A DNA stretch of 30,567 bases from a virus. How positions within the stretch are numbered: the stretch's first letter is position 1; each line of letters begins with the position of its first letter. Positions 9,133 to 30,567 of the stretch are shown piece by piece. Below the pieces are notes generated by a model. The model did not search any database. It saw nothing but the letters and a program-made list of their open reading frames with translations, and was not told the origin of the DNA. The position numbers were made by a program, and so were the translations under genes. The DNA lies in the IMG/VR virus record IMGVR_UViG_3300020465_000063, positions 1 through 30,567 of that record. One strand, given 5' to 3'.

Positions 9133-10251
9133 TTATGAAACTGCTTGAATTTTACAATGATATGAAGGAGGACCATATTCAAATCCCATCTCCATATAAA
9201 TTGCTTTACCAATTCTAGCGTTTGCATCTTGGTCTAAATCACGAACAAACACAGTACCATATCCTGGGATATTGGTGAATACTGGTTGTATGTAAGCTAG
9301 GTCCAAGATGAAAGCAGTGTTATCAGGTAGGATGTCTGGGTCAACAACCATCATTCCGATTGAACCGAATGGGGTTACGATTGTATCAACATCTATACCT
9401 GCAACATTTCTATCTCTAGGAATGATTGCTCCTGCTATATCAACTGTTCCTTTAACAAGTTCATTGTTAAGGTCTAGTAATTGTTTTGGACTAACAGCTA
9501 ACACAGGTTGATTCATTGGTGCATGGTTGTCATACATTCTCTTTAACGCACCTGATATAGTTGCGAAACTAAGAACTTGTGTTGAACCACTACCATCACC
9601 TGCTGTGTCGTTGTAGAAACAGTTACCACCTAATGGGTTAACTGCTGCTGTGTTACTTGCGTTCTTGCCTATGGTAATCCATACATCAAGACCATACATT
9701 TCTCTAGTTCCTGACCCAGGGGTGACATTAGCACCATCTGAGAAAGAACCATTGAATGCAAACCACTCAACTTCTCTAGCTACTTTTTCCATTGCTTTTT
9801 CAAGCTGTAATGCAAATTCATCATTTACTGGGTTACCACCGAACAATCCTAATTTATCTGCTGCTGTTACTGTTCCATCTCCATCAGATGAGTTAGCAAT
9901 ATTAGCTGATAAGTCAAAAGGATTTTGGTTACCTGTGGATGCTAAAGCTGTGTAGGTCATTTGTACACCTTTATGGAAAATCTGAGTTACATATGTATAT
10001 GCAGCTCTATCTCTTCCAAGATATTCTGTAGGTGTAGAACCTTCTTGTCCTTTAGTTGGTTCTGAAGAAATGGTTGCATTATCTTCTACTTGGACTTGCC
10101 AAAATGTAGAGTTTAATGTTTTACCACCATTCAAACCACCAACTGCTGAGAGTAAAGGTGTTCTTTGACCACCAACTTTAAACAATTCACCAGTAAAGTT
10201 ATTAATGTTTTGTGCATAAATCGTATTGTTAGTTAACGATATGTCTGCCAT
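9133..10251 (-). CDS. Major capsid protein, SU10/DUF5309-like
   Basis: 372 residues, HK97-fold type. N-terminal region has RTPLLSAVGGLNGGK, then a TYVTQIFHKGVQMTYTALA strand, then EFALQLEKAMEKVAREVEWFAFNG helix. This order (P.L.(A)IGG, TQIF...V.(V/M)(S/T).TA, Q..KA..E..R(D/E)(I/V)E) is the signature of the SU10/DUF5309 major capsid family. The C-terminus includes the strand pairs VDTIVTPFGSIGMMVVDPDI and LAYIQPVFTNIPGYGTVFV expected in the A-domain/P-domain. Preceded by the scaffold gene and a good ribosome site (AGGAGAAGATAAAA), followed by a terminator. Confident on role; family name from memory of the motif pattern. Confidence 0.88.
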   Translation of the reverse strand: MADISLTNNTIYAQNINNFTGELFKVGGQRTPLLSAVGGLNGGKTLNSTFWQVQVEDNATISSEPTKGQEGSTPTEYLGRDRAAYTYVTQIFHKGVQMTYTALASTGNQNPFDLSANIANSSDGDGTVTAADKLGLFGGNPVNDEFALQLEKAMEKVAREVEWFAFNGSFSDGANVTPGSGTREMYGLDVWITIGKNASNTAAVNPLGGNCFYNDTAGDGSGSTQVLSFATISGALKRMYDNHAPMNQPVLAVSPKQLLDLNNELVKGTVDIAGAIIPRDRNVAGIDVDTIVTPFGSIGMMVVDPDILPDNTAFILDLAYIQPVFTNIPGYGTVFVRDLDQDANARIGKAIYMEMGFEYGPPSYHCKIQAVS

Positions 10252-27073: not shown

Positions 27074-28996
27074 TTAACTCCAATTATCTATATCCATATT
27101 ACTAGGTTCATACCCAGAAAAGCTAGGATTATAGTCATATCCTAATTCTGCAAATCTTTCTTTTTGCATTCTTCTTATAGCTCTCATTGGAAACCAACTA
27201 GCCATAACTATGTCTGTTTTTGTACCTACTGTTTTGCTTTTGTTTCTAGCAGAACTGAAATATACTAACTGACTTGTATATAAGTTTACCTTTTCTTGGG
27301 CTTCAAATCCAAGATATGGCAAAGAAATATTTTGTTCTTGAAACATTGGTCGCATAGCTGTAACACCATACATAGGGTCAAATTTATTCTTATGTGTTTC
27401 GTGACCTTCTAAAAATATACCATGACCTGATGCAAACTCTCTTATGCTTTTATCTTGTCGTATTGCTTTTTGAAATCCATTTTCTTCTATAACCCAGTGT
27501 GATAAGTTATACTTCATCCACCATTCTTTCATTATTTCTAATGCTTGTGGAATACCACCACCAAGGTTATTGTTCATGTCTACCATGTACAATTTGTTTT
27601 CTACAGGCTCGTATGCCCACAAAAATGCTGCTTGATAACCTGTAGATGCAGGGTCTAATCCTGCAATAAGTCTTGTACCATGTGGTACATTACCAATATC
27701 TCTTTTTTGATTACGACATGCTTCTATCTCTTCTCTATCAAATAAAGCTAGACCATCAGGCATAGCAACATTTAAATAAACCATTTCGTATATAGCCCTA
27801 CCACCTGTAGTTTCTGCTGCTCTCTTTCTATCCATTAACCACTTGTAAGTTCTTTTACCAGACCACAACATACAATCTACATGGTCATCTTCTTCCCAAT
27901 CTGTTTTGTTACATCCACTATCGTGTGCTTCTTCTACAATAGTTTTCCAAGATTCGTTATCAACTAGGTGTGAATAAAGGTCATCATAATGTTGTCTTGA
28001 ACCTATAACAATCATGGCTGTATGTTCCTCTTTACGACTTGATAGTGTAGTAGTCCACCAGTTTCTTGTGTTTTCTCTTGATGCAGGTTGCATTGTAGAA
28101 CTGTGGTCTTCAATGTCATCTCCAATAATTATGTCACAGTCACGAGATAGAATCTTACCACCACGACCTATACCTACCATTGTAGGTGATTTAATACCTG
28201 TGACTGTTCTAGTACCTACAGTAAACTCTGTAGATGACCAAGCCTTACCACTTCTGTTTTGTGGTTTAAATTTTGGTCCTGGTCCACATATCTCTTCTAT
28301 TAATAATTCATTATTTTCTAGTTGGTCCATAACAGAGCTAACAGAGTTCTTAGCTATGTCTTCATTACCACCTACCCATAAAATTCTTACATTTGGATTT
28401 TGTGTAATTAACCAAACAACAAAGTGTATAAGTAAATCTGTTTTACCATGTCTAGGTGGTGACAGTATCATTTGTTGTTCACCATTATCTATAGAAGATA
28501 ATATTGCTTTTATCCATCTAGTATGAAACTCTGGTGTGTCATAAGGTACACCTTGTTCTGTTTGAAAATATCTATTTCTAAATTCTTTAAAATGTTCTAT
28601 TGTTTGTTCTGACTCTACTGGTGACCAAGATTCTTGTAGTTTTTCATTTTCTAAATCTTCTAAGAAAGCATTATAAGCCATAGATACAGATGCAACAGAT
28701 ACATCTAAAACTTTGGCTACATCTGATAATGTCATTTTCTTTATAAGTATTTCATTACCAAGACCAGACTCTTTCAAATCATCATAGACTTTACCTCTAC
28801 GAGTCTGTACATTTTTTTGACTAGGTATATTTAAAACATCTTCTTCTTGTGTCCATTCAACACCTTTTTTCTTTGCTCTTTTCTTTTGTGTGTTAATTCT
28901 GTTACGACATCTTTCACTACAAAACTTTCTAGCTTTAGGTGGTAATACTTTATGACAACCTGCTGCGTAACATAATTTTTTATTTTTTGTATCCAT
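27074..28996 (-). CDS. terL: Terminase large subunit with N-terminal zinc finger and HTH
   Basis: 640 residues from ATG 28996 (a GTG one codon upstream is possible). ATPase/nuclease that pumps and cuts phage DNA. Residues 9-30 hold C-x4-C-x11-C-x3-C (Cys9, 14, 26, 30), a zinc-finger pattern, followed by a basic stretch. Residues ~88-112 (MTLSDVAKVLDVSVASVSMA) read as a helix-turn-helix. Walker A-type SPPRHGKTDL is at ~179-188, Walker B DIIIGDDIEDH at ~288-298, a VIGSRQHYDDL coupling region at ~330-340, and the nuclease core LIAGLDPASTGY with Asp448. The N-terminal DNA-binding modules are extra to a standard TerL and may replace the small subunit, which I do not find elsewhere in the window. 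No strong ribosome site is visible. Confidence 0.9.
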   Translation of the reverse strand: MDTKNKKLCYAAGCHKVLPPKARKFCSERCRNRINTQKKRAKKKGVEWTQEEDVLNIPSQKNVQTRRGKVYDDLKESGLGNEILIKKMTLSDVAKVLDVSVASVSMAYNAFLEDLENEKLQESWSPVESEQTIEHFKEFRNRYFQTEQGVPYDTPEFHTRWIKAILSSIDNGEQQMILSPPRHGKTDLLIHFVVWLITQNPNVRILWVGGNEDIAKNSVSSVMDQLENNELLIEEICGPGPKFKPQNRSGKAWSSTEFTVGTRTVTGIKSPTMVGIGRGGKILSRDCDIIIGDDIEDHSSTMQPASRENTRNWWTTTLSSRKEEHTAMIVIGSRQHYDDLYSHLVDNESWKTIVEEAHDSGCNKTDWEEDDHVDCMLWSGKRTYKWLMDRKRAAETTGGRAIYEMVYLNVAMPDGLALFDREEIEACRNQKRDIGNVPHGTRLIAGLDPASTGYQAAFLWAYEPVENKLYMVDMNNNLGGGIPQALEIMKEWWMKYNLSHWVIEENGFQKAIRQDKSIREFASGHGIFLEGHETHKNKFDPMYGVTAMRPMFQEQNISLPYLGFEAQEKVNLYTSQLVYFSSARNKSKTVGTKTDIVMASWFPMRAIRRMQKERFAELGYDYNPSFSGYEPSNMDIDNWS

Positions 28997-29075
28997 CACA
29001 CTTTTTATTTTTGCATTTCATTTTATCCCTTGGTCTTAATACCACCCCACACTTAGGACATGGTATCTTAATCAA
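28980..29075 (-). CDS. 31-aa zinc-ribbon peptide, TTG start
   Basis: Small frame starting at TTG 29075 immediately after the preceding stop: (M)IKIPCPKCGVVLRPRD followed by KMKCKNKKCDGYKK. The arrangement CPKC-x11-C-x4-C is a zinc ribbon. It overlaps the terminase start by 17 bases in another frame. Conservation of four cysteines in such a short frame makes chance unlikely, but the start codon is weak and the ribosome site is only a purine run (AAGAAAAAATAA). Possibly a DNA-binding or packaging accessory. Confidence 0.5.
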   Translation of the reverse strand: MIKIPCPKCGVVLRPRDKMKCKNKKCDGYKK

Positions 29076-29392: not shown

Positions 29393-29653
29393 TTACCACG
29401 CTTTGCAAGACCAGTATCTTGGTGTTGTTTTATCTGTAGCAGTGTCACATTTATGTCTTGCTCTAAATGATTTCCTTGCTTCAGCATTATCTTTTCTAAT
29501 CTCCATGTTAGGGTCACCAAACATTACTTTGATAACTTTTCCCTTTTTATTTTTTACATAGACTTTAGATTTTTTTCTTCCATAACCAGGTTCACCTTTC
29601 CCTATTCGTGAAGGTTTATTAAGTGTGACTGTCTTACCCTGGTATGTAGCCAT
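29393..29653 (-). CDS. 86-aa basic phage protein (GDPNMEIR/RARHxCD type)
   Basis: 86 residues: a basic N-terminal half (KKSKVYVKNKKGKVIKVMFG) then DPNMEIRKDNAEARKSFRAR, HKCDTATDKTTPRYWSCKAW. This is a well-marked family of phage proteins with FGDPNM.I..(D/N)...R(K/R).FRARH.CD....(K/D)(T/K)T..YWSCK.W at the end. It is found in many marine phage genomes and near capsid/packaging genes in some; I do not know its role. The His/Cys pattern (H, C, C) could bind metal. ATG overlaps the stop of the lysine-rich micro-ORF. Confidence 0.8.
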   Translation of the reverse strand: MATYQGKTVTLNKPSRIGKGEPGYGRKKSKVYVKNKKGKVIKVMFGDPNMEIRKDNAEARKSFRARHKCDTATDKTTPRYWSCKAW

Positions 29654-29715
29654 TAGTAACCTAGTTTCTTTTTGCCCTTGCCTTTTGTTTTTTTCTTTTT
29701 CTTTTTCATATACAT
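29653..29715 (-). CDS. 20-aa lysine-rich micro-ORF
   Basis: ATG at 29715 (or 29709) encodes MYMKKKKKKTKGKGKKKLGY, ending in a stop that overlaps the 86-aa gene's ATG. The coupling and the position directly after a terminator hairpin and a TATAGT box (29730-29725, nine bases before the ATG) argue for a translated leader or real micro-protein. The A-rich composition alone could produce lysines by chance, so confidence is low. Confidence 0.4.
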   Translation of the reverse strand: MYMKKKKKKTKGKGKKKLGY

Positions 29716-29736
29716 AATATCAATACTATAACACAA

Positions 29737-29756
29737 AACTCCACCGAAGTGGAGTT
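29737..29756 (-). terminator. Terminator with UUCG tetraloop before packaging operon
   Basis: Eight-base perfect stem AACTCCAC/GTGGAGTT closed on the minus strand by TTCG between C and G, the very stable C(UUCG)G loop, followed by TTGTGTTAT. It would stop transcripts arriving from the right, or act as an attenuator for the leader read from the promoter at 30097-30123. TATAGT (29730-29725) follows six bases later. Confidence 0.6.
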
Positions 29757-29862
29757 CTGCTCGTATCAGTGTCCAAACTGTTACTTATGAAAAAAAACGA
29801 AATAAAACTATCTTACAGAATCACAAATGTCCTATATGAAAAGCTATCTTTCTTTTTTTCTA

Positions 29863-29884
29863 ATCGTATATCCTCATATACGAT
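29863..29884. promoter_or_regulatory. Perfect inverted repeat, possible operator
   Basis: ATCGTATAT-CCTC-ATATACGAT: nine-base arms, four-base centre. On the minus strand it lies about 25 bases after the TATAAT at 29915-29910, so a transcript from there would carry it as a hairpin near its 5' end, or it may be a protein-binding site. No U-tract follows, so it is not a terminator. Confidence 0.4.
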
Positions 29885-29909
29885 ACCTAAGACTTCCCTA
29901 GGTAAAAAC

Positions 29910-29915
29910 ATTATA
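29910..29915 (-). promoter_or_regulatory. Possible -10 box
   Basis: TATAAT on the minus strand downstream of the A7T9 tract, which could serve as an upstream activating element. No good -35 hexamer at 16-18 bases. Would drive the micro-ORF and packaging genes if the following hairpin at 29756-29737 does not terminate. Confidence 0.3.
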
Positions 29916-29961
29916 ATAAAATAATTTATTTGGGGAGTAAAAAAATTTTTTTTTGTAAGCA

Positions 29962-30010
29962 GTACTGCCTCACTTTTAGGTCACTTGCGTGACTTGCGTG
30001 AGGCGTGTAC
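29962..30010 (-). ncRNA. Two-tier hairpin with tandem CACGCAAGT repeat
   Basis: Outer pairs GTAC (30007-30010 with 29962-29965) and GCCTCAC/GTGAGGC (29967-29973 with 29998-30004), inner stem GTCAC/GTGAC (29980-29984 with 29989-29993) with loop TTGC. The nine-base unit ACTTGCGTG (plus strand) occurs twice in tandem, so slipped pairings are possible. Downstream of the promoter at 30097-30123 on the minus strand, so likely part of an RNA leader or small RNA. Confidence 0.4.
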
Positions 30011-30020
30011 CACACAAACA

Positions 30021-30087
30021 AAGAAAGGAGGGCTATGAAGATTGTCTAAACAACCAGAAGGTTGGATAAAGACTTCATGCCTTTCTT
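30021..30087 (-). ncRNA. Candidate small RNA or leader start, three stacked stems
   Basis: Stems: AAGAAAGG/CCTTTCTT (30021-30028 with 30080-30087), ATGAAG/CTTCAT plus a G-U pair (30034-30040 with 30073-30079), and CAACC-AGAA-GGTTG (30051-30064). A five-base bulge and an internal loop separate them. The promoter at 30123-30097 predicts transcription start near 30090, just outside the outer stem, so the RNA would begin with this fold. On the minus strand it contains CCCTCCTTTCTT, identical over ten bases to the usual 3' tail CCUCCUUUCU of Gram-positive-type 16S rRNA. Confidence 0.45.
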
Positions 30088-30096
30088 GATACAAAA

Positions 30097-30123
30097 AGTA
30101 TACCACATATTGTATATAATCAA
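30097..30123 (-). promoter_or_regulatory. Promoter of leader/packaging region
   Basis: Minus strand TTGATT (30123-30118), 15-base spacer ending TGG, TATACT (30102-30097). TG extension of the -10 and 15-base spacer match the scaffold promoter at 10978-10952. Lies after the terminator at 30265-30244 and therefore starts the late transcript or a small RNA. Confidence 0.6.
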
Positions 30124-30131
30124 GTAAATCT

Positions 30132-30196
30132 ATGGGGTTTCTGTATGATTGCTCGTAGGCGAAAGGAGGAAACTCCTACTACTACAAAAACCCCAT
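30132..30196. other. Long stem with switchable inner hairpin
   Basis: ATGGGGTTT/AAACCCCAT (nine pairs), one C-A mismatch, then TGTA/TACA (four pairs): 30132-30145 with 30183-30196. Inside, GTAGG/CCTAC (30155-30159 with 30175-30179) and AGGAG-GAAA-CTCCT (30164-30177) compete for the same CCT. No U-tract on either side, so not a simple terminator. It lies just upstream of the promoter at 30123 on the minus strand. Could be an RNA from another promoter, or a DNA cruciform/protein site. Confidence 0.45.
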
Positions 30197-30243
30197 TACA
30201 CAAATACTAGCATTTAAAGTAAAAGGTGTTATAGTAATAAAAC

Positions 30244-30265
30244 AAGCAAGGAGTCCTTCCTGCTT
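30244..30265 (-). terminator. Terminator ending the upstream operon
   Basis: Stem AAGCA + GGA paired with TCC + TGCTT (eight pairs, one bulged base), loop of five, followed on the minus strand by TGTTTTATTAC. About 110 bases past the stop of the right-edge ORF. Separates the upstream region from the promoter at 30123-30097. Confidence 0.5.
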
Positions 30266-30320
30266 TAAGAAAAGGATTCTTGACCATACTTTATTAATCA
30301 AGTGGATTAGCAGGACCATG

Positions 30321-30344
30321 GTAACTAGCGTGATAGGCTATTAC
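30321..30344. other. Bulged hairpin
   Basis: GTAA/TTAC and TAGC/GCTA pairs with one bulged base and a seven-base loop (30321-30344). No flanking T-run. Purpose unknown; part of the hairpin-rich region after the right-edge ORF. Confidence 0.3.
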
Positions 30345-30375
30345 TTCACATTATTTATTTGTTACTATTTTTAGT

Positions 30376-30564
30376 TCATTCTGGTTTGGGAGGGAGTGAC
30401 ACAGGGTTAGCTGTTCTATATAAATTATAAACAGTAAAGATATATAAATTTTTTTCACAATCTTCTTTATTAGTGAAATATACTCTATTTAGTACACTAC
30501 TATATGTAGTACCACTATATATAGTACACCCTTTAACAGCATATTTTCTGAGGGTACACATCAC
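30376..30564 (-). CDS. Right-edge small ORF, doubtful, possibly partial
   Basis: 61-62 residues from ATG 30561 or GTG 30564; the frame is open to the edge, so the true start may lie outside. The product (MCTLRKYAVKGCTIYSGTTY, then SSVLNRVYFTNKEDCEKN, ending PVSLPPKPE) is not recognised. A short internal repeat (TIYSG/TTYSS) comes from DNA direct repeats around TAGTAC. Codon choice is less regular than in the phage genes and no neighbour can confirm it. It may be the end of an upstream gene or noncoding sequence with binding sites. Confidence 0.35.
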   Translation of the reverse strand: MMCTLRKYAVKGCTIYSGTTYSSVLNRVYFTNKEDCEKNLYIFTVYNLYRTANPVSLPPKPE

Positions 30565-30567
30565 ATC

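What the first reader, a model, noticed from the sequence alone, without database searches (positions are those of the whole stretch)
29716..30375. Dense cluster of RNA-like folds in a 660-base gene-free region
At least six stems with 8-13 pairs each lie within about 480 bases, between two terminators, in a genome that otherwise wastes almost no space. A promoter starts just at one fold. This could be one or more phage noncoding RNAs, a long regulated leader for the packaging operon, or an origin.
Basis: partly seen in the sequence, partly recalled or inferred. Interest (0 to 1): 0.7.

Follow-up and report, generated by a model that had tools for sequence, protein, structure and literature searches.

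The report
New phage leader RNA between operons

Summary
It begins about 7 nt after an extended -10 promoter (TGTTATAGT; motif in 77 of 91 relatives, 7.4 expected). It has a 5' hairpin, a 6-bp pseudoknot paired in 41 of 41 sequences with compensatory changes, a second hairpin and a closing helix: 93% of 1,100 cells pair, 225 with changes on both sides, against 64 in shuffles. Wobble bias (54:13) fixes the strand. One strand of the closing helix has two covarying, mutually exclusive partners. At least 120 viral-contig stretches carry it; no Rfam family matches. A few relatives have an unrelated structured RNA in the same slot. The left half of the region is a separate minus-strand structured leader of the packaging operon, with its own promoter and terminator. 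Best guess: a cis-acting nascent-RNA element of the divergent (early-type) operon, working like HK022 put. The family and its place are near certain; the mechanism is inferred, about 0.4.

The parts
30227..30235 (+). Extended -10 promoter TGTTATAGT for the plus-strand RNA; start about 30241-30243
   Evidence: TGnTAnnnT in 77 of 91 distinct relatives, 60 of them 6 or 7 nt before the conserved ACAAGC start; 7.4 expected by shuffling
30241..30412 (+). Conserved structured leader RNA (core), 5' AACAAGC...CACAGGGUUAG 3'
   Evidence: Model R1 hit 30235-30412, 177 bits; 41-sequence alignment A2; 93.3% of cells paired, 225 cells changed on both sides vs 64 in shuffles
30249..30281 (+). 5' hairpin P3, 10 pairs (30249-30258 with 30272-30281)
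   Evidence: all 10 pairs have changes on both sides; up to 10 independent double changes per pair on a tree
30259..30314 (+). Pseudoknot PK, 6 pairs (30259-30264 in the P3 loop with 30309-30314)
   Evidence: 100% paired in 41 sequences; UA/AU/GC and CG/UA/AU exchanges
30322..30343 (+). Hairpin P2, 7 pairs
   Evidence: 95% paired; GC/CG/UA exchange at 30329-30337, 7 independent events
30346..30399 (+). Closing helix P1 (UCAC 30346-30349 with GUGA 30396-30399)
   Evidence: 97% paired, all four pairs change on both sides
30362..30399 (+). Alternative helix P1alt (UUACU 30362-30366 with AGUGA 30395-30399), exclusive with P1
   Evidence: 95.7% paired; slides of 1-2 columns give 29-50%; the two partners and the shared strand change together at least 6 and 4 times independently
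30132..30196 (.). Hairpin B between the two divergent promoters; loop reads AAAGGAGG on plus, CCUCCUUU on minus
   Evidence: z = -4.8; conserved in many relatives, in inverted orientation in L048, L120, L222 and L262
30097..30123 (-). Promoter of the terminase-ward transcript: TTGATT, 15 nt, TATACT (TGG before it)
   Evidence: sequence; extended -10 at this place in 71 of 116 relatives vs 21.9 expected; the version with a -35 was not enriched, 2 vs 1.3
29729..30089 (-). Structured leader of the packaging operon: hairpins 30021-30087, 29962-30010, 29884-29904, 29864-29883, 29767-29780
   Evidence: z = -7.2; blastn blocks shared with relatives
29736..29757 (-). Intrinsic terminator ending that leader
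   Evidence: stem plus GTTTTGTGTT tail in the sequence; block shared with relatives, with different stem sequences in them
29725..29733 (-). Extended -10 promoter TGTTATAGT for the small-ORF and terminase operon
   Evidence: sequence; similar sequence follows the terminator in most relatives listed; in others TTGACT-17-TATAAT
29939..29954 (.). A/T tract (A9T7 read on minus), conserved DNA-level site
   Evidence: A5+T5+ in 102 of 116 relatives vs 3.1 expected; the only one in the window
30487..30530 (.). Palindromic GTACTATATATAGTGGTAC-type repeats just after the RNA
   Evidence: blastn block 30558-30488 shared with relatives; alignments of flanks

Best explanation
The region is the divergent promoter block between the packaging operon (minus strand) and an opposite operon that carries an ssDNA-annealing-protein-like gene in a near relative, so probably an early or replication operon. 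SHOWN by sequence: on the plus strand an extended -10 promoter at 30227-30235 is followed about 7 nt later by a conserved RNA (about 30241-30412) with hairpin P3, a pseudoknot into its loop, hairpin P2, closing helix P1, and a mutually exclusive P1alt that uses the same 3' strand. INFERRED: the RNA folds as it leaves RNA polymerase and acts in cis on the elongating polymerase as an antiterminator or pause-control element that works like HK022 putRNA. P1 and P1alt would be its two states, for example before and after a factor binds. On the minus strand a second, unrelated structured leader (30089-29729) ends in a terminator before the terminase operon.
For: Covariation of P3, PK, P2 and P1. Strand: 54 A-C versus 13 G-U cells on minus means G-U on plus. 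Promoter placed 6-7 nt before the RNA start. Genes beyond the RNA in the loci lie mostly on the RNA's strand, although first genes and distances vary (53 to about 650 nt), which suits a distance-independent element better than translation control. One convincing copy per record tested. A different structured RNA fills the same slot, with the same kind of promoter and the same downstream repeats, in L053, L085, L390 and L391. In the L171 lineage the RNA is followed by an 11-bp terminator-like hairpin and then a new promoter TTGACA-17-AATAAT. putL RNA likewise sits just downstream of an early promoter (PMC9378689).
Against: No transcript data. Intrinsic terminators are not enriched co-directionally along the 8.6 kb downstream in L384 (one on +), so there is little visible for an antiterminator to suppress. 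No resemblance to the put fold (two stem-loops, about 70 nt). The L171 arrangement also fits a free-standing sRNA. The L230 lineage lacks the P1alt strand, so the switch is not universal. A few relatives (L225, L180, L189, L257) have short ORFs of the other direction beyond the RNA, so the divergent layout is not perfect.
Confidence: 0.4

Rival explanations
1. A free-standing trans-acting phage noncoding RNA of about 180-250 nt that binds a host or phage protein or mRNA; its position at the divergent promoter is incidental.
For: In the L171 lineage a terminator-like hairpin and then a near-perfect promoter follow the RNA before the first gene. In L003/L384, close to the window, the first gene lies 399 nt past the core and has its own SD and a possible promoter. 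The RNA has a compact fold and sequence-conserved loops (GGUUUGGGAGGGAG, AAGUGGA).
Against: No terminator right after the RNA in the window. In the L230 lineage the start codon of a gene follows within 53 nt.
Confidence: 0.33
2. A riboswitch-like or protein-binding leader that controls translation or attenuation of the first gene through the P1/P1alt switch.
For: Two mutually exclusive covarying helices, as expected of an expression platform; pseudoknotted aptamer-like 5' part.
Against: First genes differ among lineages and lie 53 to about 650 nt away; no terminator or SD is sequestered by the shared strand; no Rfam riboswitch matches.
Confidence: 0.12
3. An origin-linked RNA: a transcript that opens or primes replication at the palindromic, AT-rich repeats that follow it.
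For: The RNA is transcribed toward conserved palindromic repeats and a CACATTAAACCCCCC block; GC skew changes sign at the locus in L384; the 3' end is G-rich, as R-loop-forming RNAs are.
Against: The skew also tracks gene direction; no replication data; covariation shows the RNA fold itself is selected, which an origin alone would not need.
Confidence: 0.1
4. The whole cluster is one long RNA or leader of the packaging operon on the minus strand, as first suggested.
For: Strong minus-strand folding of 29728-30092 and a terminator before the terminase operon.
Against: The conserved core prefers the plus strand and lies upstream of the minus-strand promoter at 30097-30123; two divergent promoters cut the region.
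Confidence: 0.05

Closest known systems
HK022 putL/putR RNA (nascent RNA antiterminator)
   Same: Structured RNA directly downstream of a phage promoter of host sigma-70 type, at the head of an early-type operon; location independent of the first gene.
   Different: put is about 70 nt with two stem-loops (PMC9378689); here about 175 nt, with a pseudoknot, a third helix and a bistable closing helix. Function is untested here and there is one copy per genome rather than two.
Lambda-type late-gene leader with terminator before late genes (general knowledge)
   Same: The minus-strand leader with a terminator upstream of the terminase operon has the same layout.
   Different: Several hairpins instead of a short leader; a new promoter directly follows the terminator; no Q-like protein was looked for.
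ROOL, GOLLD, OLE large ornate RNAs (in PMC12286853)
   Same: Structured noncoding RNAs, some linked to phages.
   Different: Much larger; no covariance-model match to any Rfam family on either strand.
phi29-type packaging RNA
   Same: Structured RNA near packaging genes in a phage.
   Different: Read away from the packaging genes; no Rfam match; no link to the packaging ATPase shown.

Membership tests
HK022 put RNA | Directly downstream of an early phage promoter | tested here: met
   extended -10 6-7 nt before the RNA start in most relatives; that the operon is early is inferred from gene direction and one ssDNA-annealing-protein match in L384
HK022 put RNA | About 70 nt made of two stem-loops | tested here: not met
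   about 175 nt, three helices plus a pseudoknot; put description from PMC9378689
HK022 put RNA | Makes RNA polymerase terminator-resistant without a phage protein, through the beta' zinc-binding domain | not testable with these tools
   needs in vitro transcription or genetics
ROOL, GOLLD, OLE or any other Rfam 15 family | Match to the family covariance model | tested here: not met
   no match at gathering score in the window or 12 relatives; permissive search best E 0.094, all far below gathering scores
IMES motifs of marine metagenomes (Weinberg et al. 2009; recalled) | Match to the published consensus | not tested
   paper not held; whether Rfam includes them is not known to me
phi29-type pRNA | Match to the Rfam model for phage packaging RNA | tested here: not met
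   no Rfam match; the RNA also reads away from the terminase; binding to the packaging ATPase not testable

The most novel reading that the evidence does not exclude
A slot at the head of a phage operon that must hold a structured nascent RNA but accepts unrelated RNA folds: a pseudoknotted, bistable antiterminator-like class in most relatives and a second, non-homologous class in others, so RNA-only control of host RNA polymerase would be widespread and diverse in marine phages rather than a lambdoid curiosity.
Probability: 0.25. Interest if true: 0.82.

Novelty: new variant of a known kind. Interest (0 to 1): 0.62.

Why it matters
It has a clear start, strand, pseudoknot and two competing helices, so it is directly testable. 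If it acts on host RNA polymerase, RNA-only antitermination would extend well beyond lambdoid phages. It also shows how a stem-rich gene-free stretch can mislead about strand.

Tried and rejected
Known RNA families: no Rfam match on either strand, also with permissive filters. tRNA/tmRNA: none. Minus-strand reading of the core: my first working model, dropped after the wobble count, consensus folding and promoter placement. Occurrence in bacterial genomes: 111 hits of the 20-base pattern in genome contigs; the three that passed a loose flank filter were unrelated on inspection, so chance. Named phages: no convincing DNA match to the core in INPHARED and only about 23% terminase identity to Streptomyces phages, so no annotated relative. 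A second copy in L080 (20 bits) lies in apparent coding sequence. Anti-SD sRNA idea for hairpin B: its orientation is inverted in some relatives and it sits between the two promoters, so left open. Terminator enrichment along the downstream operon: not seen. Enrichment of a -35 for the minus promoter: not seen. Literature searches for the family found nothing.

Full report
What the window is. The 30.6 kb window is a linear virus record, 33% G+C, with nearly all genes on the minus strand: a terminase large subunit (27074-28999, PHROG 38), an SU10-type capsid protein (9133-10251) and many unknowns. No named phage is close: the terminase reaches only about 23% identity in INPHARED. Relatives in IMG/VR are plentiful: two searches gave 80 loci each.

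The observation. Between the 86-aa ORF 29393-29653 and the right end there is no ORF of 60 aa except a 62-aa one at 30376-30564 that overlaps the conserved RNA and is probably spurious. Stems are really dense. Folding the minus strand of 29728-30092 gives -111.4 kcal/mol against a shuffled mean of -74.3 (z = -7.2); hairpin B at 30125-30205 gives z = -4.8. By contrast the evolutionarily best supported part, 30240-30412, is not exceptional by energy on either strand (z = +0.5 and +0.7); such folding cannot see a pseudoknot.

Conservation. blastn against the relatives showed shared noncoding blocks at 30417-30154, 30558-30488, 30088-29992, 29953-29836 and 29806-29728. Of 181 copies, 152 have a terminase homologue 0.5-2.3 kb away. 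A covariance model from 41 sequences scores 106-185 bits on copies and nothing convincing elsewhere in the loci searched, including more distant phages that only share the small ORF. The sequences used to build the model match it by construction.

Strand. I first read the block on the terminase strand. Three results overturned that. In the aligned helices, cells that are A-C on minus (G-U on plus) number 54 against 13 G-U cells. Consensus folding is better on plus (-15.3 versus -11.4 kcal/mol). The conserved TACTATANCA just beyond the 5' hairpin is the reverse complement of an extended -10 promoter: TGnTAnnnT occurs in 77 of 91 distinct relatives, 60 of them 6 or 7 nt before the ACAAGC start, against 7.4 expected from a mononucleotide shuffle. 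The L230 lineage, counted as 'none' in that scan, shows TTGCAA-16-TATTGT by eye.

Structure. On alignment A2 the helices P3, PK, P2 and P1 give 93.3% standard pairs in 1,100 cells, 21 of 27 pairs with changes on both sides and 225 such cells (shuffled mean 64, none of 500 shuffles as high); slides of the 3' partner by 1-3 columns give 31-51%. The pseudoknot pairs in all 41 sequences with UA/AU/GC and CG/UA/AU exchanges. On a FastTree tree built without the P1 and P1alt columns, double changes occurred up to 10 times per P3 pair, up to 4 per PK pair and up to 7 per P2 or P1 pair. The strand AGUGA (30395-30399) also pairs with UUACU (30362-30366): 95.7% of 185 cells, with a U-G wobble as the commonest pair at one position. 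The three positions change together at least 6 times at the first pair and 4 times at another. Because P1 and P1alt share a strand they exclude each other. Caveats: recombination between phages could mimic repeated events, and the L230 lineage lacks the P1alt strand.

Surroundings. In the loci, genes beyond the RNA lie mostly on its strand, and genes on the other side mostly on the opposite strand; in the L171 and L230 lineages the nearest genes on both sides share its strand. A near relative, L384 (98% identity in the core), has about 9 kb of mostly co-directional small genes after the RNA, one of them resembling an ssDNA-annealing protein, so this is probably an early or replication operon; the window ends before it. 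The first gene and its distance vary: 53 nt in L230, 150 in L171, 399 in L003. In L171 an 11-bp terminator-like hairpin and then TTGACA-17-AATAAT follow the RNA.

The other leader. The minus-strand promoter TTGATT-15-TATACT (30123-30097) starts a leader of about 360 nt with hairpins at 30021-30087, 29962-30010, 29884-29904, 29864-29883 and 29767-29780, ended by the terminator at 29736-29757. A fresh extended -10 (29733-29725) follows, then a 20-aa lysine-rich ORF (29715-29653) and the packaging genes. An extended -10 at the first promoter's place is enriched (71 of 116 versus 21.9), a -35 is not. Hairpin B lies between the two divergent promoters and is inverted in some relatives, so it may act as DNA.

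A replaced RNA. Four contigs (L052/L391, L053/L392, L085, L390) have the same kind of promoter and the same downstream repeats but, in place of the core, a different conserved RNA-like sequence (ACAAAYATTTAYACC...GTRTAAATC) whose closing stem shows one compensatory change; the model does not recognise it even with filters off. With two sequence groups only, this second class is a lead, not a proof.

Mechanism. A structured RNA at the first nucleotides of a transcript, indifferent to which gene follows and replaceable by another fold, is best explained as a nascent-RNA element acting in cis on RNA polymerase, like HK022 put (PMC9378689). This is inference: no transcript, terminator read-through or polymerase contact was tested, and co-directional terminators are not enriched downstream. 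A free-standing trans-acting RNA is nearly as likely. It is not filed as put: size and fold do not match.

Novelty. No Rfam 15 family matches and the literature searches found no description, but the library is partial and the IMES motifs of marine metagenomes could not be compared.

Noticed in passing
29939-29954 and 102 of 116 relatives: A tract of 5-10 A then 5-9 T followed by an (N)CACC-like motif lies between the RNA and the terminase gene in nearly all relatives (3.1 expected by shuffling), sometimes inside ORFs; looks like a DNA-level site, perhaps for packaging.
   Followed up: partly
30487-30567 and L384:560-760: Palindromic repeats GTACTATATATAGTGGTAC, a block TTTAACAGCATAT and CACATTAAACCCCCC follow the RNA in relatives; GC skew changes sign at the locus in L384, origin-like or operator-like.
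   Followed up: partly
L053:240-800, L085:1250-1760, L390, L391: A second, unrelated structured-RNA-like sequence replaces the core at the same place (GGACATCAGGCGTACAAAAGC found in 4 stretches).
   Followed up: partly
30132-30196: Hairpin with loop AAAGGAGG (or CCUCCUUU on the other strand, like the 16S 3' end) between the divergent promoters; inverted in L048, L120, L222, L262.
   Followed up: partly
29653-29715: 20-aa lysine-rich ORF (MYMKKKKKKTKGKGKKKLGY) whose stop overlaps the start of the 86-aa ORF; several relatives have short lysine-rich ORFs there.
   Followed up: no
L211, L213, L256: Instead of the terminase-ward leader, a gene (MFDFKEQLEIGRKGE..., nuclease-like by eye) starts divergently close to the RNA's promoter.
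   Followed up: no
29393-29653: 86-aa protein (PHROG 7595) found in very many phage contigs; DNA matches in Pelagibacter, Roseobacter and Flavobacterium phages; function unknown.
   Followed up: no
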